Notes under the pieces: model-generated
Seen by the model: the letters and a program-made list of their open reading frames with translations, nothing else
The model's database searches: none
Told to the model about the DNA's origin: nothing
Made by a program: the position numbers and the translations under genes
Origin: Mucilaginibacter ginkgonis
Lineage (GTDB): Bacteria > Bacteroidota > Bacteroidia > Sphingobacteriales > Sphingobacteriaceae
Direction of reading: 5' to 3'
Assembly: GCF_009754905.2 (NCBI RefSeq)
Contig: NZ_CP066775.1
Coordinates: 2,418,001 to 2,482,000 of the forward strand
Length of the DNA stretch: 64,000 nt
Shown: positions 22,111-33,335 of the stretch, piece after piece
How the letters are laid out: each line of letters starts with the position of its first letter
Numbering within the stretch: position 1 is the first letter of the stretch

Positions 22111-23922
22111 ATGGCTTTTAAGTTTATTAAAAAACGATGGCAAAAAATTTTAGCTGTTGAACTTATCGGTTTAGCCATTATTGTTTTCGTTATTGGCTTG
22201 CTGATAAATATCTACTGGTCGCCAATTGTATCAGACAGGTTAAAAACAATTGTAAATAACTCCTCAGACGGCCTATATAAGATCGATTTTTCAGATGCCC
22301 AACTACATTTTCTACAGGGTAAAATCGTGATCCACAATATCAACCTACGGCCGGATACCGCAACCTATAATAGATTGAGGTCACGCGGACTTGCGCCCAA
22401 CAACCTGATTGAATTGCGCTTAAAACGACTGGTGCTTAAAAATATCCATCCACTGCGCCTTTATTTTAAAAAAGAACTGGAAATAGGCGATGTTATCTTT
22501 AGCGCGCCTAATGTGCATGTTACCTATCAGCTAAATCACCTGACGGATACCGTTGCAAAAGACAAACGAACGCTCTATCAGCAAATAGCGTCAACCTTAA
22601 AGAAGGTCCACATTGGTAATATTTTATTTAATGACGTAGAACTTAAGTACGAAGACCGCCATACCGCGCAACCAAAGATCACCGAATTGCGGGAGTTGAA
22701 TTTTAACGCCATTGATTTTTTAGTGGATAGCGCATCGCAGTTTAATAAAAAGAGGTATTTGTATTGCAGCGATGTAACCGCGGAGTTATATAATTATATA
22801 GGGAAGTCGGCAAACTGCTTGTATAGTTACTCTGCCAAAGAGATCAGCTTTTCTACTAAAACTTCGCAATTAAAGGCTTACAAATGTTCGCTGGTGGCCA
22901 CCCGAAAGCTTACCGAATTTTTTAAATATACCTATCGCGACCAGTTTGTTTTCAACCTCGATTCATTACAGATCAATCATTTCGATTTTCAAGGTTATAA
23001 TAAGTACCATAATGTGCATGCCTCGACGGTTTCGCTTACAAACGGCGGACTAAATATCTTCGGCAACCCGCGGCTCAACCCAAAAAAGGTGAACGCCGAC
23101 CGTATTAACAGCTTTCCCAACCAGGCAATTTTTAATATTCCCATCGATTTAAAGATCGATACGGTAAAGGTAAAAAATATTGACCTGGTTTATCGCGAGT
23201 ACGGCGTTAAAACCAATCGTGAAGGGCACATTGGTTTTTATGACATCGCCGGCAATATGCTTAACATTACCAACAACAAGGAGGCTGTAAAGCTTAATCC
23301 CGTAACGTTGGTAAAATTTAAATCGCGCTTTATGAAAAAGGCGCCTATCGAAACAGAATTTACCTTTGACCTGGCGGATAGTTTACGCAGCTATTCTTAC
23401 AAAGGCAGCCTGGGCGTAATGAAACTGTCTGACGCGAACCCGATAGCCGTTCCGCTGGGTTCATTAAGTGTAAATGGCGGGCAATGCAAGGGGCTGTTCT
23501 TCGATATAAAGGCTGACAAGAATAGTTCGCGCGGGAAGGTGACATTTTTGTACAGCAACTTACGGGTTCATCTATTAAAGGCCGATACCGTGAACGAGAA
23601 GATGCATCATTTGCGTATAGCCTCCATTATTGCCAATAACGGCATTTTAAAACGCAACAACCCCGACACCATTGATGCTGAGCCACGCAGCGCCATACTG
23701 AACCTTCCCCGGCCAAAAAACTTCCCGTTCTTTAAAACCATGCTGCAAACGCTTATAAGCGGCATAAAGCCCTGTACCGGTTTCGACGAGAAAACCCAGC
23801 AGGCGGTAAAAGCACGCATGGCACAACATGAAATAGACAAGGCCTTGCGCAAGCAAAAGAAAGCATTACGAAAAGCGCGCAAAGACAGGGAAAAGGCGCG
23901 AAGAAATTTTTATAAAAAATAA
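22111..23922 (+). CDS. Membrane-anchored AsmA-like protein
   Basis: 603 residues. One N-terminal membrane helix (about 14-34) is followed by a long periplasmic region rich in alternating beta strands such as FSDAQLHFLQGKIVIHNINL, the pattern of AsmA/DUF748-type proteins that line lipid-transfer bridges or act at the envelope. The last 45 residues are strongly basic (KALRKQKKALRKARKDREK) and look like an extended helix. No catalytic motif is seen. It is transcribed away from miaB and is followed by an accessory-looking lipoprotein gene. Family placement is by pattern only. Confidence 0.65.
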   Translation: MAFKFIKKRWQKILAVELIGLAIIVFVIGLLINIYWSPIVSDRLKTIVNNSSDGLYKIDFSDAQLHFLQGKIVIHNINLRPDTATYNRLRSRGLAPNNLIELRLKRLVLKNIHPLRLYFKKELEIGDVIFSAPNVHVTYQLNHLTDTVAKDKRTLYQQIASTLKKVHIGNILFNDVELKYEDRHTAQPKITELRELNFNAIDFLVDSASQFNKKRYLYCSDVTAELYNYIGKSANCLYSYSAKEISFSTKTSQLKAYKCSLVATRKLTEFFKYTYRDQFVFNLDSLQINHFDFQGYNKYHNVHASTVSLTNGGLNIFGNPRLNPKKVNADRINSFPNQAIFNIPIDLKIDTVKVKNIDLVYREYGVKTNREGHIGFYDIAGNMLNITNNKEAVKLNPVTLVKFKSRFMKKAPIETEFTFDLADSLRSYSYKGSLGVMKLSDANPIAVPLGSLSVNGGQCKGLFFDIKADKNSSRGKVTFLYSNLRVHLLKADTVNEKMHHLRIASIIANNGILKRNNPDTIDAEPRSAILNLPRPKNFPFFKTMLQTLISGIKPCTGFDEKTQQAVKARMAQHEIDKALRKQKKALRKARKDREKARRNFYKK

Positions 23923-23993
23923 TTATAATTTATTGTAACCTTCTTCATTTTGGTACGTAAACATGATGAATACTTACTAAACCTTTTTACAAA

Positions 23994-24323
23994 ATGAAGA
24001 AATCTTTCCTTTCCAAATCCTTGCTGCGTTACGCAGCTGCATTAACTTTCATGGCGGCCCTTATTTACGGATGCAAAAAAGAATTATCTACGGGTGCATT
24101 AGTCGCCGCCACAACTTCTGAGGCGAGAACGTGGTATGAAAACACTTATCCAAAGCTTGCTGTCTCTGCAAAGGCCTCGCAAAGCATGTCAGACCTGCCC
24201 GATTACAGCCAGTTGTTGCAACCCGACTGGGACAAAGCTGTTATATATAAAAGATTTGGACAAGATGTTACTGAGGTATCGGTTGGTGCAGAATCAAATT
24301 TGCTCTCGGCCTTAAAAATTTAA
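23994..24323 (+). pseudogene. 5' part of frameshifted lipoprotein gene with JAMM-like domain
   Basis: Encodes a signal peptide with lipobox ALIYGC (Cys27) and about 80 further residues, then stops at 24321-24323. The matching frame continues in the next feature. Restoring one A in the A5 run at 24314-24318 would turn ...ALKI-stop into ALKNLTIGKTPYRQ and join both parts into a protein of about 490 residues. A true mutation, a base-call error or slippage at the A-run would all give this picture. Base composition is more AT-rich than the housekeeping genes around it. Confidence 0.6.
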
Positions 24324-24370
24324 CTATTGGCAAAACGCCGTACCGGCAAGAAAATAGTAAAAGCTCTTTC

Positions 24371-25468
24371 TTGATCTTAAAAGACTCTACGGGTTACCAA
24401 GCGTTTGTAATGGTTATTATGGCCGATTCTGCATGGCTGAATGGGGATCGTAATAAGCTTGAAAATTTGCGCTACAATAAAAGAGATGCCGACTTTAGCG
24501 GCTTGGTCATGTACTTTACTCCTAAAGGACAACTTACAGACGTGTGGCGGTATGTAAATGGTAAAATTATCTTGCAAACCTCTAACTCAGGTAATCAAAA
24601 ACAAAGTTTAACAAGTAACGAAATACATGTTAATACGCAAGAAAAAGAATGTTGGGACTATTATCTCGTACCTATGACAAACGGCCGCCCTGACGGCCCT
24701 GAACAATATTTATTTACAATTTGTTACGAAATTAGTGGCGGCGGTGGCGGCGGTGCGGATGGTGACGGCGCTCCCCCTGCAACCCCGAATAATCCAAAAC
24801 CGAATTGCTCGGTGCCTACTGGAAATCAATCAATTAAAGTGCAAAATTTGCCACCTGACGGCGGCGGTGACGATGGTACAGGTTATCCTCAACCAACAGA
24901 TAAATGTCCGACTTACAAGTCTCCAGTTCCCAGTATCTATTTTGATACGGATAATTTATTTCTAAACTTAAACGGGTTAAAACCATTTGCCGAAAGTCCT
25001 GACAAATGTTCTGGTCTACAGCAATTACAAGACAAGAGCCTCAATGAACAAAAAGAGACCGTTGGTTTATTAACATCTGACGGCAAATTTTTATGCGTTG
25101 CTGTGACGGGATACGACGGTGGTAATTGGGGTGGCTTGTATAATTTTGAAGGGCAGGCCTATTACACCTATCCTTCGAGTGCGGGAGCCCCTACTCAAAC
25201 ATATTCTGGGATGATAAATAGAGGAGGACAATATTATATCCCAGTTGTTGCAACCGTTCATACCCACTATCCGTGTCACGACGATGGCACTGATGGTGTT
25301 ACTGGAGGCACATTAAGCTCAGGTGATAAAAACTTGGCAAACAAATATCCTATGATGAACCATTACATTGTTGGATGCGACGCATTGGGTAAATTTGCTA
25401 ATGGCGATAACTCAGCAACCTTATTGAGCACGGGGACTTTATCTTCAACGTGCTCTAAAGTAAACTAA
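24371..25468 (+). pseudogene. 3' part of frameshifted lipoprotein gene with JAMM-like domain
   Basis: 365 residues if translation began at the TTG at 24371, but this frame is open from about 24314 and probably continues the preceding part. It has a beta-rich N-terminal half, a flexible Gly/Asp/Pro linker (about 119-185), and a C-terminal domain with residues arranged as in JAMM/MPN metalloproteases: Glu229 in ETVGLL, His297-Thr-His299, and Ser316/Ser317-Gly-Asp319 in LSSGDK. The loop between the His pair and the Ser/Asp is longer than usual and has a DDGTDG turn. Six Cys occur in the exported part. Metal binding is inference. Confidence 0.55.
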
Positions 25469-25472
25469 TCAT

Positions 25473-26063
25473 ATGCTTAAGTATACATTAGTTCTCATTT
25501 TGTTTATTACTAGTTTCAGTTATGCACAACAGATGCAACCTTTTCATATTAATCAGGTCGCTATCATAGATAGCAACCTGATTAAAGGAATTAATTATTC
25601 GCTTAGTGCTCAAAAAACAAAAACCAGCGTTGATACAAATACTGAAAATCCCTTTGATAAAGGATTTGGTTATTTTGAGGTAAGAGTTAAAGAGTTTAAG
25701 GGTGACACGGTCCTTGGCTACAATATCACTCCGAGTGCTTTTATCTTTAAAAAAAACAATCCAAAGCAAATTTACCCTGACTATTATGGTTATGTAAACG
25801 GACAATTGGTATTGATCTATAATGAGCCCTTATACCGGTCGGTACAACGTAACCTTACAGATAAAGAAAAAGGTAGATTTATAAAAATGCTAGACAAGCA
25901 TTTAGAAAAACCTCAAAAAGCAACTTTTTATGATTCGGATCATCGAAAGGTTTTCACAGATAAAAACTATCGTGTTGACTATTTTTCGTTCGATGCGGGA
26001 ATCAACTTATATGTTCTTAAAAACGGTTCAACCGTTATCGTTAAAGACAAAGGGCAGTTTTAG
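25473..26063 (+). CDS. Exported protein of unknown function, partner of the JAMM-like lipoprotein
   Basis: 196 residues with a signal peptide ending FSYAQ. The mature part is beta-rich, with FEVRVKEFKGDTVLGYNITP and a YYGYVNGQLVLIYN stretch, no Cys and no recognisable catalytic motif. It starts 4 bases after the stop of the JAMM-like gene, so the two are one transcription unit and were probably acquired together. Both are AT-rich relative to their neighbours. I do not recognise the family. Confidence 0.6.
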   Translation: MLKYTLVLILFITSFSYAQQMQPFHINQVAIIDSNLIKGINYSLSAQKTKTSVDTNTENPFDKGFGYFEVRVKEFKGDTVLGYNITPSAFIFKKNNPKQIYPDYYGYVNGQLVLIYNEPLYRSVQRNLTDKEKGRFIKMLDKHLEKPQKATFYDSDHRKVFTDKNYRVDYFSFDAGINLYVLKNGSTVIVKDKGQF

Positions 26064-26312
26064 TCTGCGGTACACAAACCTATTAGCAAATAACGCTTTT
26101 GTGACATCGTTTTGTCAGTGTAACACATGTGACACCAGGTGAAACACTTTTTTAAGATTTTAGCGATTCGGGTGACACTGACACAATCGTGCACTGCTGA
26201 TGCTCAGCCGATTATCTTGATGACAAGATGGTGTCAGATACTAATAAGTCAGTATTTAGTAGGGAAAGTGTAACATGTTACACCCATCCGTCAGCTGAGG
26301 GATCAGTAGGTT
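26064..26312. promoter_or_regulatory. Gene-free stretch crowded with TGACA/TGTCA motifs and dyads
   Basis: Lies between two convergent genes and has no credible coding frame. Seven TGACA/TGTCA pentamers fall between 26102 and 26236, including two TGACA-N6-TGTCA dyads (26102-26117, 26221-26236). A perfect 16-base palindrome GTGTAACATGTTACAC is at 26268-26283, and a related imperfect one at 26118-26135. Nineteen bases at 26239-26257 are identical to the complement of 13681-13699. Its function is unknown; operator cluster or mobile-element relic are options. Confidence 0.5.
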
Positions 26313-29300
26313 TTATTGCAATAACAACTTCAGATTTACCCCAAAGTTAGTGAAGGCAGTGTTGAATGCCTGGGAAGTATACGGCTTGGTGATGTTGGTA
26401 TCGTAAAACAAGCTAAGATTAAAGCGCTGGTTAACGGCATAGTCGATAGTCGGGCGGAAGGTGATGTTCTTGGCACCCGATGATATCTCTGCCTGGTTAA
26501 CGTCGGCACGGTAGATCAACGTTTTGTTGTCGCGAATGGCGGCATCCACCTTAAAGTTAAGGTCGTTCTTGAGGATCAAATTGTTAAACAAACCGAAAGG
26601 GAACCTGAAGTTTCGTGTCCGGTACCCGAAACCCAAAACAATGATATTCTCGTTCTGCTGTGCCAGCTGACTGTTAGCTAAACTTAAACTTAACGTGCGC
26701 GATTTGCGGTATTCGAAGTTGGTGGTGATGCTGTTCTTGAACCTTATATCCATTCCCAGCAAAGGCACAAACTGCTCAAAAATAGTTATCTGCGAGAATT
26801 GGTAGTAAGGCAGAAAGTCATTATTAAGGTCGCGGTTGTAAGACGCACCATTAACCTCTTTGTACTGCAACAACGTGTTAAAGCTATTTACGGTATATGT
26901 TGAGCGGTAACCATGTTTCAGATCAATAGCGTCGAACCAGTCAGAGAAAAGGCGCATGCGGCTTAAACCGCCGTAAGTGATGTACCAGTTTGGTATAGGG
27001 ATAGAAGGGAAATTATTCAAACTGGCTGTCGAGGCGCTCTTGCCGGAATATGCCGCAAGGAAAGAGGTTACCAATACATTTTGCTGGTTTGGCCCGTAGC
27101 CATCCGCGTAACCTGCCGTCTGCCCCTGGCTGTTGGGGTTTTGGGCAGCAAGACGCTGCGATATAATGGCCCTGTTGGTGAGCAATCTGTTAAATGTCGC
27201 TGATGTATTATTCAACCCATTAGCACTGGTAAACGCCGACGCGATGCTTAAGTAAGATATGCTGTAGTCGCCGCTGGTTATAGGGCTCAGTTCTTCGAAA
27301 CGGCCCGTGGTGGGGAAGTATTTAAAATTGGTTTGGAATACGCGGTCTTGCGTACGCAAGGCGGTAAGTTCTATGCGTAGGTCGCGCAGCGGCTCAATGA
27401 TACTGCGGATATTAAGGTTTTCGTTCAGCGTACGCGAATACAACTGGTTTTGCAGGGTGTCTGTACTCAGCCAGCCATTGGCAGCCGCCTTAGCGCGGAT
27501 GTCTGCCTGGCTACCTAACAAGAAACCCAACCCGGGTGAGTTGTAACTAAAGTCCTCACCGGCAAAATTGCTATTGGGCAAATAACCCGGCAGGTAAGTT
27601 CCTTCTGTACGGCCGTAAGTTCCGCTGATGTTCTTTACACTGGTCAATAAACCAACAAAAAACTTCTTCAGCCCACCGTGACCATCTGACGATTGCTCGC
27701 GCACTACCCGCAATTTATTATACAAAGTAATTAGGTTAAGCGTTGGCCTAACGGTGATGGTACGTTTGTTTTGTATGGTATTACCCACGTTGTAATCGGG
27801 GTTGTTAAACGCGAAAGTTGGTTGTGCCTGCCAGTTAAAATAAGTACTGTACAGCACATTCATGTTTGCAAAATCAAAACCCGGTATTTTATTCAATGGC
27901 ACGTTATAAGTAAGGTTCAACTGGTGGTAGTAGTTAACGGTACGGCCTAACTTTAAAAGGTTATTCCACAAAGTATCTTTCTTTAAACCGTTAACCCGTC
28001 CCGCAGGTTCGTCAACAATACCTAAGTTGGTCGCGTCAATATCCAATTGCAGGCTCTTGGTCAGGTTCCAGCCAATGCCATATACACGGGTAATATTAAA
28101 GCTTTTGTTAAAAGTAGTCGGGATTGGTATGTAGTTGTTGGGGTCGTTATTACGCAGCGTATTTTCCGAATAAAACCTGTCGAAATTGATGCTGAAGTTT
28201 AATCTTGTCGGTAACAAACTATAGTTGAAATCCTTTACCGCACGCAAGGCATTGGCTTTGATCAGCTTCTCGAACGGCGAATAGTATTTAGCCTGATTGA
28301 TATAATTATAGGCAAGCGCTACACGATAGGTTTCCTGCAGATCGCTCAGCGTAGTAAAATCATGATGGCGGTACTCACTATAAGCGTAGGTGGCGTTGAA
28401 ATTCTCGATATCCCACAAATGGGTCTTGGCAGACGGGTCTGTCTTGGTCTTGTGGATATTTGTAAAATTAATGCTGCGCCTTATAGTATAGTCTACCGCG
28501 GCATTTTTGATAGAGTCGCGCTCCTTATCAGATGCGGCTGAGGCAAGGGTTTGCTTCAGCTCTACGTCGGGTTGTGCCGGGTCATACTGCGGCATTGCAG
28601 ACTGCGACGACACATTGATGAACATGGGTATATGCACGCCGCTTTTAGCCGGGAACAACTTGCCTAGTTCTACATTGGTAGCTACATCATAAGAACTGTT
28701 ATCGCTGCGGCTGCGTTCACTTACCCGTTGCTCTATCGATCCAAAACCAATTGTGCTCTTACTGCCGGCAACAGTTACATCGGCAAAGTCGGCCAGTTTA
28801 GCGTTCAGCCTTGCTGTTGCAGCCCATCCGCCGCGCTGGTCAAAGTCGGTCAGGCGTAACTCATCGAACCAAACTGTAGCGCTTTTATCCAGGCCGTCGT
28901 CGCCGGTTGTTGTCTTGAGCGGGTTGCGTACACCCACCATAATATCGCGCAGACGGCTAAGGTCAGGCTGACCTTTAATGGTCACTTTATTTTTCCCATC
29001 AACCAACGTATATGGTAAGTTTAACGGCCAGGGCTGCCCGTTCAATGTAGCATGGTTACGGGCCAGTTTGGCATTAGTGAGTAAAGACAACGGAATGTCC
29101 AGGGCATTGGCATCGGACCATATGGCAGCGGGGTCGGTTGTTGGCTGGGTAATGGTTAATGGTATTTCGTACTCGTAGTAGTTATCCTGGTAATCCACAC
29201 CAAAACGAACGAACGCGCTTACATCGCCATTTTTTAGGTTGTCGCCTTCGGCGTGGATAAACATGTTGATGTTCTTGTAAGAACGCAGGTCATTATAAAA

Positions 29301-32300
29301 AGTGCGGTACGCAGCCCGGGAGTAACCATCGCGCAGGTTGGATACTTTTACAGAAAGCGACTGCTCATTCAACTGGGTGGTAGTGCGCAGATTGTTAAAA
29401 TCGCGCTGACGTACAATGCCCGGCGGCACCACATAAGGTATGGGCGACCGGTTACCGTTCTCCTCGATATTTACCGTACTCACATCAAGGGTAGAATTAT
29501 CAAGCGGCGGATTGGTAATAGATGGGTCGGCGATTACTTTCAGTGTACTAGCCTCTTCATTATAGTTGCGCCACTCACCGCGTTCAAATTGCAGGGTTGC
29601 AAAACGCAAAACCGTAGTATCGGCAAAACCGGTCATAAACATCCGCACAAAACGGATAGCTTTAAAATCTTCTATGTTACCAACCTTATTTTTGTAGTTA
29701 TAAATAGGTATCCTAAACTGGTACCAGGTTGCAGGCTGGGTAGTACCATCAGGCAGTTTAACCTGCGACGTGATCTTATCGGTAATATATTGCTGGCCAA
29801 CCTGTAATGTGCCCGGGTTAATATCAACCTTATACTCAAAATACTCATCGGCCTGGCTCATGGTATTATCGCGATTGATGTCCTCACCATCGGGGTAGGC
29901 CGTCGCTGCAGAAGTTGTCAAACCCAAATCGGCTTGGGATTGCGCCGTAGTTTTTGAGTTACCTTCAGTATTGTTATACCTGCTGTAGCGCTGTAAGATG
30001 CCGGCGTTAGAAGCGTCTAATTGCGGGCCGCGATAGTACTGATAGTTATCGCTCGATGGGTCATTGGTTAAAATGTTTGCGGCTGCTGTGTTTAACGTCC
30101 CTTTTACCTGGTTAAGGAAAGGCGCAAACTTCACCTGCTCATCTTTATCATTCAAACCATCGACACCTATATCCTGTAAAGAACGCGAGTCGGGGTTATT
30201 ATCAAATGCATTTACAACGGGTTGCAATTTAGGGACGCGACCCCAGGCTGTCTCGTCAACTTTGGTCAGGTCGCCATCCACAGGCAAACCGTTTTCTAAA
30301 CTCTTGCGGCCGTCTTTCAGTACGTCTTCAGATATACTGCCCAAATCAAAGTAAAGGCTACCCCCGGTAGAATTCTTTTTGTAAATAAATGGGTCGAGCA
30401 CCCAGAACGAAATGAACTCTACGTTGAGCGACTCAAAATCGTTGGTTTCTATCTTACGATAAATACCGCCCCAGCGCGATGCCGGGTTTTGCAGCGTACC
30501 ATTGTTGTTAATACCTGTTGTTGTATAGTTATACGGCCCGCGAACGTTAGGATAAAAAGCCAGGTCCAGCGTTGGCAAGATCAACGGTGATCCTGTTACC
30601 GACTGTTTGTAAGGAAACACCTCCGTCTCTAAAACCTGGCGCACATACTGGTTAGACAATTCGCTCCGGGTGTTCCCGGTTAACACACTGCTGGTATTTG
30701 TATAAAATATCGGGTCGATGTTATAAAAGGCCAGCAACGCACGGTTGTAACCATAGCTCAGATCATTAAAGTTTTGCGATTCGGGGAATAGTTGGGGTGT
30801 ACCCGATATCTGCCAAGCAATAGCACTTTTAATGTCTATGATAGACCGGCTGTTTTCAAAGTCGTCCAGATACGACGTTCCTTTTGTAGATCCGGCAAAG
30901 TTCAAGGCACTTGGGCTGCCCGGGAAAAGCTTGGCGAACTCGCCGTTAAAAGTTACAGTTGATGGAGCCTTGGTTGATATCAAGGGCAGTTTGTCTACCA
31001 GTCGTGTCAGGTATCGCGAGTTAGCGCTGTAGTTGACGTCGAAACCTGCAATGGTATTTGATATCGACTCCTCGCCTATCACTTCCTTCTGCGTTATCGG
31101 TGTTTCAGATAAGTGCATTACCGTAGCACCTAAGCCCAGATTTGGATTTACCCGGTAATCGAACCTCGACCCGTATAGAGACCGCTGCTGGATACCAAAC
31201 AACTCGTTATTCTCCAACCTTACGGTAATGGGCTGGCCCGATGATAATAACGCCTGATTGATGATGGTTAACCTGCCGCTGTTATAATCGATGTTAAAAT
31301 CTGTACCTTCTGTAAGCTGTAAGCTACCCGCGGAAACAATGACTGATCCTTGCGGGATATTCAATGCATTCAGCTGGAACTCTGATCCGCTTTTCGACGA
31401 GTACTGCCCCTTAATAACGTACCGGTTTAGTTGAGGGAAATATTGCCGCGCGATAGTTTTTGTAGAATCGTACAAGGGCTGATAGGAATATCTGCTTACC
31501 AAGGCTTGCTCGCCCGGGGCGAATTTGGCGGCAAGGTCAGACCCGAAGGGTTCTACCAGCGGAAAGATGATCCGCCCGTTTTGCGAATCGATGGTGATCC
31601 CTTCAATGTAGTCAAAATACCCATCGGGCTTCTTATCATTCTGCGCATTTAGGTTATCCAGACCAACCAATTGCAGCCAAAGCTTACTGGTTGTATTGAC
31701 CCCCTCGTCCATTATGGGTTTCTCAATGCCCGACTTTTCATCCAAACGGGTGATCTGCATCCTGAAATTTTGCGGGCTAACCTGGTAGGCACCTAATGAA
31801 TAGATGTTTTTCATCATCAGTTTCCAGGTTGGCAAACTGGTTTTTAGCAGGTCACTTTTGATCAACTTTGTGTACAATACCTTCGGTGTTACCGGATCGA
31901 CGGCCACATCGGTAGAGAACTCACCAACTTGGTATTCAACGCCATTGTACGTATAGCGGTAGGCAACGGCCAGTACCTCGTCGTTGTTCAGCGGCGAATT
32001 CAGGGAGATGTAACCAAGTTGCGGATGCAATACATATTCCTTATCAGACAGTTTGCGCGCGTAGGTTAGTTTAGAGTAGTTGTCGGTACTTCCGGTTGAT
32101 TGAAAGTACGTAGCAACGTCATTTGAATTAGTTTGCCTTGCGCCCGGCGGCAGGTTTTGCAACAGGTTATTAGACTGCTGCGGAAAGTTAGGATTTGAAT
32201 ACCCCGAAGGCAAAGCCGAACCGCCGCCCTGCACCCGCTGTGTATTATATGGCTGGTTTTCGCCCAAATCCAAAAAGGCTAAGATGTCCCGCGAGTCAGT

Positions 32301-33335
32301 TGTGACGTTGGTACGGTTAGTTGTCCAAACCTCTATTTTGGTAATGTTGATATTGGTGCTGATGATCGGGATATTCGCCAGCGCCCTGTCGTAGTTGTTG
32401 CGGAAATATTGCGACAGGAAATAGTGTTTGTTGGCTTCGTAGTCGGCCGGCGTAAGCCTGAATTCGCCTTGTTGGGCGCCATTGGTTATGGTAATGGTTT
32501 TGGCCTGCGACCGCTGCTGTGAGAATACGCTGGTTACATCCAGTTTCCCAAATTTTAACTTGGTTTTCACACCAAATAGTGCCTGGCTGCCTTGGATCAA
32601 CGTAGTTGGTAAAGGCATGCTTACCACCCCCGCCTCTATTTTCTGAATGATCTCGTCGGCATGGCCCGTATAATCTAGTTTTACCTGGTTATCGAATTGG
32701 AATTGCGCGTCGGTGTTGTAATTGGTAGCGATCTTTAATTTATCGCCGATGTTACCCACCACGTTCATCTGAATTTTCTGGTCGAAATTAAAGTTGAACA
32801 CGTTGCGTTGCGCTGTGCTGTATAGCGGGTTTTGGTTGCTGTTGACCTGGCCGGAAAACAAGATCTCCGCAGAACCCTGCGGCCTGATATTAATTACAGA
32901 GCTGCCGAATATTTGCTCGAAAGTTTTGCTGCGCACATTTATCTGCGGCACAAAACCCGGCTGCTGAGACTGATAGGCGTAATTATCTGATAACTGGCGG
33001 AAATACTGGCGCTGGTCCTGGCGCTGTATCAGATCAAGGTATTGCTTGAAGGTAAGATATTGCGGAGGGCGGTAATTAAGGTTGCCTACTTTCTCTGTTA
33101 GGATATAACGGTTGGTGGCAGGGTCATATTGGATAGATCTGACCAAGTTTGGCGGGTCGGGCGCTAACACCCCTTCTAACGCCCTTGTGTTACGTGTGCC
33201 CGATTTGCGGACAGGCTGCTGTACAGTTACGCTATCGGCGCGGCCGCGGCGTTGTGCACGTGCGTTATTATACCCGCCAAAAAAAGCAAATACAACTAAA
33301 CACAGTAAAGCCTTAAACGTAAAACTTTTAACCAA
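26313..33335 (-). CDS. sprA: Type IX secretion outer-membrane translocon SprA (Sov)
   Basis: Giant beta-barrel through which type IX secretion substrates cross the outer membrane. 2340 residues, close to the roughly 2,400 of known SprA. A signal peptide ends at NARAQ. Family marks include the N-terminal PPQYLTFKQYLDLIQ and the long series of amphipathic strands, with the last strand ending in FTNFGVNLKLLLQ. It starts with TTG at 33335; the nearest ATG (33345) is out of frame and reads only five codons. Gene order maeB-ruvA-sprA matches other Bacteroidota. Needed for secretion and often gliding; other T9SS genes are not in the window. Confidence 0.95.
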   Translation of the reverse strand: MVKSFTFKALLCLVVFAFFGGYNNARAQRRGRADSVTVQQPVRKSGTRNTRALEGVLAPDPPNLVRSIQYDPATNRYILTEKVGNLNYRPPQYLTFKQYLDLIQRQDQRQYFRQLSDNYAYQSQQPGFVPQINVRSKTFEQIFGSSVINIRPQGSAEILFSGQVNSNQNPLYSTAQRNVFNFNFDQKIQMNVVGNIGDKLKIATNYNTDAQFQFDNQVKLDYTGHADEIIQKIEAGVVSMPLPTTLIQGSQALFGVKTKLKFGKLDVTSVFSQQRSQAKTITITNGAQQGEFRLTPADYEANKHYFLSQYFRNNYDRALANIPIISTNINITKIEVWTTNRTNVTTDSRDILAFLDLGENQPYNTQRVQGGGSALPSGYSNPNFPQQSNNLLQNLPPGARQTNSNDVATYFQSTGSTDNYSKLTYARKLSDKEYVLHPQLGYISLNSPLNNDEVLAVAYRYTYNGVEYQVGEFSTDVAVDPVTPKVLYTKLIKSDLLKTSLPTWKLMMKNIYSLGAYQVSPQNFRMQITRLDEKSGIEKPIMDEGVNTTSKLWLQLVGLDNLNAQNDKKPDGYFDYIEGITIDSQNGRIIFPLVEPFGSDLAAKFAPGEQALVSRYSYQPLYDSTKTIARQYFPQLNRYVIKGQYSSKSGSEFQLNALNIPQGSVIVSAGSLQLTEGTDFNIDYNSGRLTIINQALLSSGQPITVRLENNELFGIQQRSLYGSRFDYRVNPNLGLGATVMHLSETPITQKEVIGEESISNTIAGFDVNYSANSRYLTRLVDKLPLISTKAPSTVTFNGEFAKLFPGSPSALNFAGSTKGTSYLDDFENSRSIIDIKSAIAWQISGTPQLFPESQNFNDLSYGYNRALLAFYNIDPIFYTNTSSVLTGNTRSELSNQYVRQVLETEVFPYKQSVTGSPLILPTLDLAFYPNVRGPYNYTTTGINNNGTLQNPASRWGGIYRKIETNDFESLNVEFISFWVLDPFIYKKNSTGGSLYFDLGSISEDVLKDGRKSLENGLPVDGDLTKVDETAWGRVPKLQPVVNAFDNNPDSRSLQDIGVDGLNDKDEQVKFAPFLNQVKGTLNTAAANILTNDPSSDNYQYYRGPQLDASNAGILQRYSRYNNTEGNSKTTAQSQADLGLTTSAATAYPDGEDINRDNTMSQADEYFEYKVDINPGTLQVGQQYITDKITSQVKLPDGTTQPATWYQFRIPIYNYKNKVGNIEDFKAIRFVRMFMTGFADTTVLRFATLQFERGEWRNYNEEASTLKVIADPSITNPPLDNSTLDVSTVNIEENGNRSPIPYVVPPGIVRQRDFNNLRTTTQLNEQSLSVKVSNLRDGYSRAAYRTFYNDLRSYKNINMFIHAEGDNLKNGDVSAFVRFGVDYQDNYYEYEIPLTITQPTTDPAAIWSDANALDIPLSLLTNAKLARNHATLNGQPWPLNLPYTLVDGKNKVTIKGQPDLSRLRDIMVGVRNPLKTTTGDDGLDKSATVWFDELRLTDFDQRGGWAATARLNAKLADFADVTVAGSKSTIGFGSIEQRVSERSRSDNSSYDVATNVELGKLFPAKSGVHIPMFINVSSQSAMPQYDPAQPDVELKQTLASAASDKERDSIKNAAVDYTIRRSINFTNIHKTKTDPSAKTHLWDIENFNATYAYSEYRHHDFTTLSDLQETYRVALAYNYINQAKYYSPFEKLIKANALRAVKDFNYSLLPTRLNFSINFDRFYSENTLRNNDPNNYIPIPTTFNKSFNITRVYGIGWNLTKSLQLDIDATNLGIVDEPAGRVNGLKKDTLWNNLLKLGRTVNYYHQLNLTYNVPLNKIPGFDFANMNVLYSTYFNWQAQPTFAFNNPDYNVGNTIQNKRTITVRPTLNLITLYNKLRVVREQSSDGHGGLKKFFVGLLTSVKNISGTYGRTEGTYLPGYLPNSNFAGEDFSYNSPGLGFLLGSQADIRAKAAANGWLSTDTLQNQLYSRTLNENLNIRSIIEPLRDLRIELTALRTQDRVFQTNFKYFPTTGRFEELSPITSGDYSISYLSIASAFTSANGLNNTSATFNRLLTNRAIISQRLAAQNPNSQGQTAGYADGYGPNQQNVLVTSFLAAYSGKSASTASLNNFPSIPIPNWYITYGGLSRMRLFSDWFDAIDLKHGYRSTYTVNSFNTLLQYKEVNGASYNRDLNNDFLPYYQFSQITIFEQFVPLLGMDIRFKNSITTNFEYRKSRTLSLSLANSQLAQQNENIIVLGFGYRTRNFRFPFGLFNNLILKNDLNFKVDAAIRDNKTLIYRADVNQAEISSGAKNITFRPTIDYAVNQRFNLSLFYDTNITKPYTSQAFNTAFTNFGVNLKLLLQ

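What the first reader, a model, noticed from the sequence alone, without database searches (positions are those of the whole stretch)
23994..26063. Frameshifted lipoprotein with a JAMM-like metal motif and a co-transcribed exported partner
Two adjacent frames read as one protein once a base is restored in the A5 run at 24314-24318. The C-terminal domain has Glu229, His297-x-His299 and Ser316/317-x-Asp319 (numbered from 24371), the ligand order of JAMM/MPN metalloproteases, but with a longer loop and on an exported lipoprotein, which is unusual because JAMM domains are mostly cytoplasmic. A second exported protein of unknown family follows 4 bases later. Both genes look AT-rich and are followed by an odd dyad-rich region, suggesting an acquired cassette.
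Basis: partly seen in the sequence, partly recalled or inferred. Interest (0 to 1): 0.6.

Follow-up and report, generated by a model that had tools for sequence, protein, structure and literature searches.

The report
Broken bacterial weapon-and-antidote gene pair
This is a damaged copy of a lipid-anchored protein, probably a weapon that soil bacteria use against rival bacteria, next to its likely antidote gene; related bacteria carry dozens of intact-looking versions whose enzyme end and antidote change together, an arrangement I did not find described for this group.

Summary
One lipoprotein gene is split over two frames (23994-24323 and 24275-25468), an exported protein follows 4 bases later, and the last ~180 residues carry the JAMM ligand set. 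An AlphaFold2 model (pLDDT 82, pTM 0.81) aligns to MPN/JAMM domains. The interpretation needs widening. The protein belongs to a Mucilaginibacter-wide lipoprotein family (strong hits in 47 of 149 genomes) with a conserved N-domain, a Gly/Pro linker and a swappable C-terminus: JAMM, HExxH, C39 peptidase, DUF3289, HNH nuclease. Partner type follows C-terminus type: of 1993 locus pairs with unrelated C-termini none has related partners; of 285 with related C-termini 103 do. Two loci carry textbook immunity proteins (SUKH, Imm49); 34 of 80 loci have at least two partner-like genes downstream. So this is most likely a polymorphic toxin-immunity locus of lipoprotein type, here decayed (11 of 77 loci are split in this domain, in mixed frame directions) with the immunity-like gene kept. 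The C-terminus plus partner recurs in M. straminoryzae, M. roseus and Chitinophaga on divergent carriers. The 'dyad-rich' region is unrelated: one of ~35 dispersed repeats in this genome. Toxicity, delivery and substrate are untested.

The parts
23994..24323 (+). First open piece of the carrier gene: lipoprotein signal peptide (lipid Cys codon 24072-24074) and first part of the conserved N-domain; ends at a stop after the frame break
   Evidence: profile positions 1-114 of the N-domain model A2; lipobox IYGC-KKE
24275..25468 (+). Second open frame (stop to stop; 365-aa ORF from TTG 24371): rest of the N-domain, Gly/Pro linker, C-terminal JAMM-like domain
   Evidence: profile positions 109-192 of A2, 397 codons open
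24737..24911 (+). Gly/Pro-rich linker between the carrier N-domain and the C-terminal domain (limits approximate)
   Evidence: translation; similar position in homologues
24914..25465 (+). C-terminal JAMM-like domain; Glu229 25055-25057, His297 25259-25261, His299 25265-25267, Ser316 25316-25318, Asp319 25325-25327
   Evidence: ligands invariant in 4 of 4 homologues; model pLDDT 81.7, pTM 0.81; MPN/JAMM chains in VIA-align rows
25473..26063 (+). Exported partner, predicted immunity protein (196 aa), open
   Evidence: homologues follow the same C-terminal domain in 4 of 4 loci
26064..26312 (+). Dyad-rich intergenic repeat, NOT part of the gene pair; one of about 35 copies in this genome

Best explanation
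The two genes are a polymorphic toxin-immunity pair of lipoprotein type. The first gene codes for a lipid-anchored carrier: a signal peptide with C-K/R-K-D/E after the lipid cysteine, a conserved N-domain and a Gly/Pro linker, then an exchangeable enzyme domain, here a JAMM/MPN-fold metal hydrolase with several conserved cysteines. The second gene codes for a matching exported protein that probably protects the maker and its siblings in the envelope. Shown: the domain anatomy, the JAMM ligands and predicted fold, the strict matching of C-terminus and partner, domain swapping on near-identical carriers, arrays of extra partner genes and carrier-less C-terminal modules, and canonical toxin/immunity domains on the same carrier. 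Inferred: that the protein reaches neighbouring cells from the outer membrane, that the JAMM domain cuts a target there (a peptide bond is the likeliest), and that the partner binds and blocks it. In this genome the carrier frame is broken, so the locus is most likely a decayed toxin with the immunity gene kept.
For: Split gene but open homologues. Swappable C-termini: 20 blastp clusters among 71 tails; loci L140/L141 share 99% of the N-domain and L082/L083 90%, with no detectable similarity between their C-termini or partners. C-terminus/partner matching: 103 of 285 pairs with related C-termini have related partners against 0 of 1993 without; 0 of 10,000 permutations reach 103 (max 33); no exception in any N-identity bin. 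The partner changes faster (91 of 103 pairs). Canonical pairs on the same carrier: Tox-HNH-HHH (3.6e-17) with a SUKH partner above cut-off; an Imm49 partner above cut-off; Peptidase_C39_2 and DUF3289 C-termini above cut-off. Extra modules: 34 of 80 loci with at least two partner-like ORFs downstream; 14 of 80 with a further C-terminal ORF, of which 7 are only the remainder of a broken carrier and 7 hold further modules (my sorting). Window type: C-terminus plus partner in 4 of 4 loci, one in Chitinophaga. JAMM. Precedent: Tox-JAB-1 with lipoprotein Imm65 (PMC3482391, passages); SitA lipoprotein toxins (PMC5562445, PMC8546572, passages).
Against: No toxicity, binding or delivery has been tested. 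The window type has no match to any Pfam or NCBIfam family, and its partner matches no immunity family and gave an unusable model (pLDDT 51). Foldseek alone gave no PDB match at E <= 0.001, and all VIA Z-scores are below 8. hhalign finds no link between the window's JAMM type and the commoner JAMM types of the same carrier. 182 of the 285 pairs with related C-termini have partners without detectable similarity, so one broad C-terminal class goes with several partner types. The permutation test ignores phylogeny, although the N-identity bins partly control for it. The +5 residue does not complete the published surface-export signal.
Confidence: 0.8

Rival explanations
1. A surface-anchored processing or nutrient protease family with a dedicated inhibitor, chaperone or substrate; not a weapon. 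The C-terminus varies because substrates vary.
For: Most C-termini carry metallopeptidase-like motifs (28 in cluster T0 with HExxH; JAMM-like clusters T1 14, T2 4, T3 3 of 71 tails) and their partners look exported (30 of 30 HExxH rows, 17 of 19 JAMM rows). Surface lipoprotein enzymes are common in Bacteroidota (recalled; compare PMC5080379).
Against: The same carrier also bears an HNH nuclease with a SUKH partner and a C-terminus with an Imm49 partner, both partners without a strongly hydrophobic N-terminus; tandem partner arrays and carrier-less C-terminal modules are hard to explain for housekeeping proteases.
Confidence: 0.12
2. The frame break is a sequencing or assembly error and the gene is intact in the living strain.
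For: The second frame is open for 397 codons and keeps all JAMM ligands, so decay is at most recent; short homopolymer runs, common places of sequencing error, lie in the overlap of the two frames.
Against: Single-contig genome; neighbouring long genes are open; 11 of 77 loci of the family, this one included, are split in the same domain and 4 more stop soon after it, across many assemblies. Reads could not be seen.
Confidence: 0.2
3. The two frames are joined by programmed frameshifting or phase variation, so that the toxin is made at a low or switchable level.
For: Breaks in several loci fall between profile positions about 96 and 126 of the N-domain.
Against: Frame directions are mixed (both shifts occur, plus in-frame stops), no shared slippery sequence was seen by eye, and 59 of 77 loci read through the N-domain in one frame.
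Confidence: 0.03

Closest known systems
Tox-JAB-1 / Imm65 polymorphic toxins of Bacteroidetes (Zhang et al. 2012, PMC3482391, passages)
   Same: JAB/JAMM domain at the C-terminus of an exported polymorphic toxin; a strictly associated exported (lipoprotein) immunity protein; Bacteroidetes
   Different: Tox-JAB-1 sits behind RHS repeats; here the carrier is a short lipoprotein N-domain. No Pfam match to Toxin-JAB1 or DUF4329 in the window protein or in three other JAMM-like members
SitA/SitI lipoprotein toxins of myxobacteria (PMC5562445, PMC8546572, passages)
   Same: Lipoprotein with a conserved N-terminal escort domain, modular C-terminal toxin and adjacent cognate immunity gene
   Different: SitA toxins in the passages seen are nucleases that act in the cytoplasm and are delivered by TraA/TraB outer membrane exchange; here metallopeptidase-like C-termini with exported-looking partners dominate, and no delivery system is known. 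Sequence relation of the N-domains was not tested
APD1/APD2 lipobox effectors of Amoebophilus and MafB-type toxins (PMC3482391, section 37 read)
   Same: Lineage-specific conserved N-domain after a signal peptide (lipobox in APD) with polymorphic C-termini
   Different: APD effectors are thought to act on a eukaryotic host; for MafB the lipobox is on the separate MafA protein
JAMM/MPN metalloproteases (PfJAMM1, Rpn11, AMSH, CSN5, BRCC36)
   Same: Predicted fold and ligand order Glu, His-x-His, Ser-x-x-Asp
   Different: Ser lies 17 residues after the second His; exported; five Cys in the window domain, three of them invariant in 4 of 4; no relevant sequence match to a solved structure

Membership tests
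Polymorphic toxin-immunity system | Conserved N-terminal region joined to non-homologous C-terminal domains | tested here: met
   20 C-terminal clusters among 71 tails; 99% and 90% identical N-domains with unrelated C-termini
Polymorphic toxin-immunity system | Adjacent partner gene whose type follows the C-terminus | tested here: met
   103 of 285 against 0 of 1993 locus pairs
Polymorphic toxin-immunity system | Poly-immunity arrays and carrier-less toxin cassettes | tested here: met
   34 of 80 loci with at least two partner-like ORFs; 14 of 80 with a further C-terminal ORF, 7 of them only remainders of a broken carrier. Not at the window locus itself
Polymorphic toxin-immunity system | Recognised toxin and immunity domains | tested here: met
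   In other members of the family: Tox-HNH-HHH with SUKH; Imm49. Not in the window pair itself
Polymorphic toxin-immunity system | Toxicity neutralised by the cognate partner | not testable with these tools
   needs experiment
JAMM/MPN domain | Glu, His-x-His, Ser-x-x-Asp ligand set | tested here: met
   invariant in 4 of 4 homologues
JAMM/MPN domain | MPN fold | tested here: met
   Predicted model only: pTM 0.81; best VIA rows EMC8/9 Z 7.7, PfJAMM1 Z 7.3 (3.4 A over 113), then Rpn11, CSN5, AMSH, RadC (Z below 8, subunit names partly recalled). Foldseek alone weak. Distances between ligands not measured
Tox-JAB-1 (PF15659) | Match to the family profile | tested here: not met
   no match at E <= 1 for the window pieces or L007, L013, L023; none in 149 genus genomes, but the control genomes were silent too
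Tox-JAB-1 (PF15659) | Immunity protein is a lipoprotein (Imm65) | tested here: inconclusive
   all 4 partners look exported; only that of M. roseus (L068) shows a lipobox-like SSC by eye; no Pfam match of the window partner to Imm65
SitA lipoprotein toxins | Lipoprotein carrier with modular C-terminus and cognate immunity gene | tested here: met
   by anatomy and matching only
SitA lipoprotein toxins | Delivery by TraA/TraB outer membrane exchange; SitA escort domain | not tested
   TraA/TraB and escort domains were not searched for
Surface-exposed Bacteroidota lipoprotein (LES, C-X-K-(D/E)2; PMC5080379) | Lys at +3 and two acidic residues at +4 and +5 | tested here: inconclusive
   +3 Lys in 63 of 70, +4 Asp/Glu in 60 of 70, +5 acidic in only 3 of 70 N-termini in which the search pattern was found (it required K, R, H or T at +2); the signal of this genus is unknown

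The most novel reading that the evidence does not exclude
Mucilaginibacter and its relatives keep a large undescribed arsenal of outer-membrane lipoprotein toxins whose warheads are mostly metal-dependent peptidases (JAMM and HExxH) acting in the envelope of a neighbouring cell, each with a secreted immunity protein, and reshuffled by cassette exchange. This would be a Bacteroidota counterpart of myxobacterial SitA with a different chemistry and an unknown delivery route.
Probability: 0.6. Interest if true: 0.72.

Novelty: new variant of a known kind. Interest (0 to 1): 0.56.

Why it matters
It turns an isolated 'odd JAMM lipoprotein' into a genus-wide system with clear predictions: which small gene neutralises which enzyme, and in which compartment (exported-looking partners for the peptidase-like ends, partners without a signal peptide at the HNH/SUKH and Imm49 loci). 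JAMM domains are best known as cytoplasmic deubiquitinases (recalled); an envelope-acting JAMM toxin would be a new use of the fold and would give a way to find its substrate. The carrier domain and the JAMM-like ends tested have no Pfam family, HExxH ends only sub-threshold SprT-like matches, and 17 of 20 partners scanned besides the window's had no match above cut-off, so dozens of genes in this genus are poorly annotated.

Tried and rejected
Programmed frameshift: rejected because breaks in family members run in both directions. The dyad-rich tract as part of the cassette: rejected, dispersed repeat. Partner structure: model unusable. PDB sequence search with the C-terminal sequence or profile: nothing relevant. 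Toxin-JAB1 in the genus: silent, but the control was silent as well, so uninformative. Plasmid collection and viral contigs: no relatives of the C-terminus; the phage and E. coli collections were not searched. Phylum sample: the C-terminus only in the own genome (1 of 395); the N-domain in 14 of 395, mostly weak. Rfam: nothing above cut-off in 23900-26400. Promoter and terminator scan: numbers as in shuffles. RNA fold of the repeat: not significant (z -1.6). GC skew from 24 samples of 20 kb: too weak to place the replication origin, so a link between the repeat and the origin or terminus stays open. Artefacts noted: the 'partner' of L106, L107, L108, L116, L117, L134 and L137 is the remainder of the broken carrier; L108, L116, L117, L134 and L137 fall out of the pair counts because their tails are under 100 aa, L106 and L107 were left in. 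Not fetched: G008:C19, G008:C20, G128, G038 (held already as L017) and the rows weaker than 3.2e-7. The 59 'single frame' loci are single-frame through the N-domain only: at least L106, L107 and L142 break further on and the N-domain of L132 is incomplete.

Full report
WHAT IS THERE. The window lies in a single-contig 3.70 Mb genome. Between an unnamed 603-aa gene (22111-23922) and sprA (26313-33335, minus strand; name recalled) lie a lipoprotein gene in two frames and an exported 196-aa gene. A profile of 13 intact N-domains (A2) matches the first frame at positions 1-114 and the second at 109-192, so this is one broken gene. Open homologues, mostly of about 500-700 aa, exist in the genus.

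THE FAMILY. A2 finds 68 of 149 genus genomes at E <= 1e-3, many of the weakest being short partial matches, and 47 of 149 at E <= 1e-10 (my count). Outside the genus matches are sparse and mostly weak (14 of 395 in a phylum sample, 4 of these in this genus). I fetched 76 regions of these hits and analysed them with the window, G186, G130 and Chitinophaga L071: 80 loci. Most carriers show a lipobox followed by C-K/R-K-D/E. After the N-domain comes a Gly/Pro linker, then a variable end (15 homologues). Of 71 ends of at least 100 aa, blastp clustering gives 20 groups: 28 HExxH (T0), 14 JAMM-like (T1), 4 of the window type (T2), 3 JAMM-like (T3), 3 T4, and smaller ones. T1 and T3 are related by hhalign (94.7%); the window type is not detectably related to either, so JAMM-like ends may have been recruited more than once.

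PARTNERS. Of 68 loci with both an end and a partner, 285 pairs have related ends and 103 of these have related partners; of the 1993 pairs with unrelated ends none has. 10,000 permutations gave a mean of 12.9, a maximum of 33, and never 103. The other 182 pairs with related ends have partners without detectable similarity, chiefly because the broad HExxH class goes with several partner types. No pair with unrelated ends shares a partner at N-domain identity >= 70, 50-70, 35-50 or < 35% (1540 pairs of 56 loci). Near-identical carriers with unrelated ends (L140/L141 99%, L082/L083 90%) show swapping directly. In pairs where both are related, the end is more conserved than the partner in 91 of 103 (medians 41.6 and 34.9%). 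HExxH ends had a partner with a strongly hydrophobic N-terminus (over 2.0) in 30 of 30 rows and JAMM ends in 17 of 19 (L106 is an artefact and L144 scored 1.52 although it reads like a signal peptide). Among 26 other rows 12 fell below, 6 of them artefacts; the other six include the SUKH and Imm49 partners (a hydropathy rule of thumb, not a signal-peptide predictor).

WHY TOXINS. The same carrier bears Tox-HNH-HHH (PF15637, 3.6e-17) with a SUKH-family partner (PF14568 33.7 bits against 27), an end with an Imm49 partner (33.7 against 30.1), a C39-like peptidase (29.6 against 24) and DUF3289 (45 against 25). In 34 of 80 loci at least two partner-like ORFs follow (L081 five; L098 six, one of which also matches a C-terminal domain). 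In 14 of 80 a further C-terminal ORF follows: in 7 it is only the remainder of a broken carrier (L106, L107, L117, L125, L134, L137, L142), in 7 there are further modules (L091, L098, L108, L116, L132, L140, L147) (my sorting). Standalone toxin cassettes and poly-immunity loci are features of polymorphic toxin systems in Zhang et al. 2012 (PMC3482391; start of abstract, passages and section 37 seen).

THE WINDOW'S TYPE. The C-terminus occurs in 3 of 149 genus genomes, only in the own genome of a 395-genome phylum sample and, by a scan of the named genome collection, in Chitinophaga sp. sic0106 at 55% identity, as close as the nearest same-genus copy (52-53%): lateral exchange is likely. In 4 of 4 loci a homologue of the partner follows within a few bases or overlaps. 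A fifth genome (G154) has a partner-like gene in two overlapping frames and, by eye, no carrier beside it. The carriers of the other three are divergent relatives of A2 (hhalign 96% G186, 86% Chitinophaga, 77% G130). Ends are 41-51% identical to the window, partners 23-36%.

FOLD. The model (four-sequence alignment; pLDDT 81.7, pTM 0.81; residues 1-18 below 50) has helix 31-45, Glu48 at the start of strand 48-54, His-x-His at the end of strand 106-117 and Ser/Asp at helix 136-144. Foldseek alone is weak (no match at E <= 0.001; AMSH-LP at rank 2, E 0.13). In VIA-align the 50 listed rows are MPN/JAMM chains as far as I can tell from titles and recall: EMC8/9 Z 7.7, PfJAMM1 7.3 (3.4 A over 113 residues), Rpn11, CSN5, BRCC36, AMSH, RadC 5.8. 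Z stays under 8, where common arrangements can appear; the uniformity of the list together with the ligand set is what persuades me. Ligand distances could not be measured.

THE BREAK AND THE CASSETTE. Of 77 genus loci 59 read through the N-domain in one frame (at least four of these are damaged elsewhere), 11 have the N-domain split (the window's among them), 4 stop soon after it and 3 are at contig edges. Directions are mixed. In 12 of the 15 broken loci a partner-like ORF remains. Read quality is unknown, so an error here cannot be excluded. The 603-aa gene has a match in 26 of 41 relatives searched; in the 15 loci with both it and sprA in view, 7 have them 1-272 bp apart and 8 have 718-1406 bp, mostly with other ORFs; the window has 2390 bp. 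So the pair was probably acquired at this site; loss elsewhere is not excluded.

HOW IT MAY WORK. Shown: anatomy, matching, predicted fold. Inferred: the carrier is anchored in the outer membrane, possibly on the surface (the +2 to +4 residues resemble the published export signal C-X-K-(D/E)2 but the second acidic residue is absent in 67 of 70, PMC5080379 passages), and reaches a neighbour by contact, vesicles or lipoprotein exchange, as SitA does through TraA/TraB (PMC5562445 and PMC8546572, passages). The JAMM end then hydrolyses a target in the envelope; Zhang et al. suggest that toxin JAB domains may be nucleases, but an exported partner argues for an envelope target. The partner binds and blocks it.

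NOVELTY. Paper searches in the held open library listed no paper on Mucilaginibacter lipoprotein toxins: 20 of 32 papers listed; the only paper, on contractile injection systems, PMC8213781, listing only; 12 of 32; 1 of 1; 10 of 364; 7 of 7. Unlisted papers and subscription journals were not seen. New variant of a known kind.

Noticed in passing
window 26064-26312, and 34 other places in G000 (L190-L216, L238-L251): A dyad-rich intergenic repeat of about 60-220 bp in about 35 copies (71-86% identical; the tool scored 40 of 51 candidates), holding a 16-bp palindrome at 26268-26283; none of the 35 is spanned by an ORF of 80 codons or more. A 19-base core occurs 33 times in this genome and once in each of 3 of 59 other genomes (reversed control: 0 here, once in each of 2 others); no copy in 0.89 Mb of other genomes' loci. 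Over all gaps the spacing is not more even than random (P 0.19), but leaving out the largest gap (547 kb, centred near 0.20 Mb; a choice made after seeing the data) it is (CV 0.49; 0 of 20,000 random sets). dnaA is at 2.197 Mb, near the dense part; GC skew did not place the origin. Could be a mobile repeat or a chromosome-organising protein site.
   Followed up: partly
L140/L141 (one genome) and L082/L083 (one genome): Paralogous carriers in one genome with near-identical N-domains (99% and 90%) and unrelated C-termini and partners: recent cassette exchange.
   Followed up: partly
L081 and L098, downstream of the carrier, reverse strand (coordinates): Arrays of five and six partner-like ORFs behind one carrier (one of the six also matches a C-terminal domain): poly-immunity loci of unannotated families.
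   Followed up: no
window 22111-23922 and relatives such as L157, L161, L162, L178, L179: The 603-aa gene next to miaB (name recalled) has a tandem second copy (about 26-30% identical) in several relatives; no Pfam match above cut-off.
   Followed up: no
L151, L157, L161, L163 between the 603-aa gene and sprA: Four relatives carry at the same site an exported-looking protein of about 233-251 aa rich in SGSGS repeats instead of the pair: a variable site.
   Followed up: no
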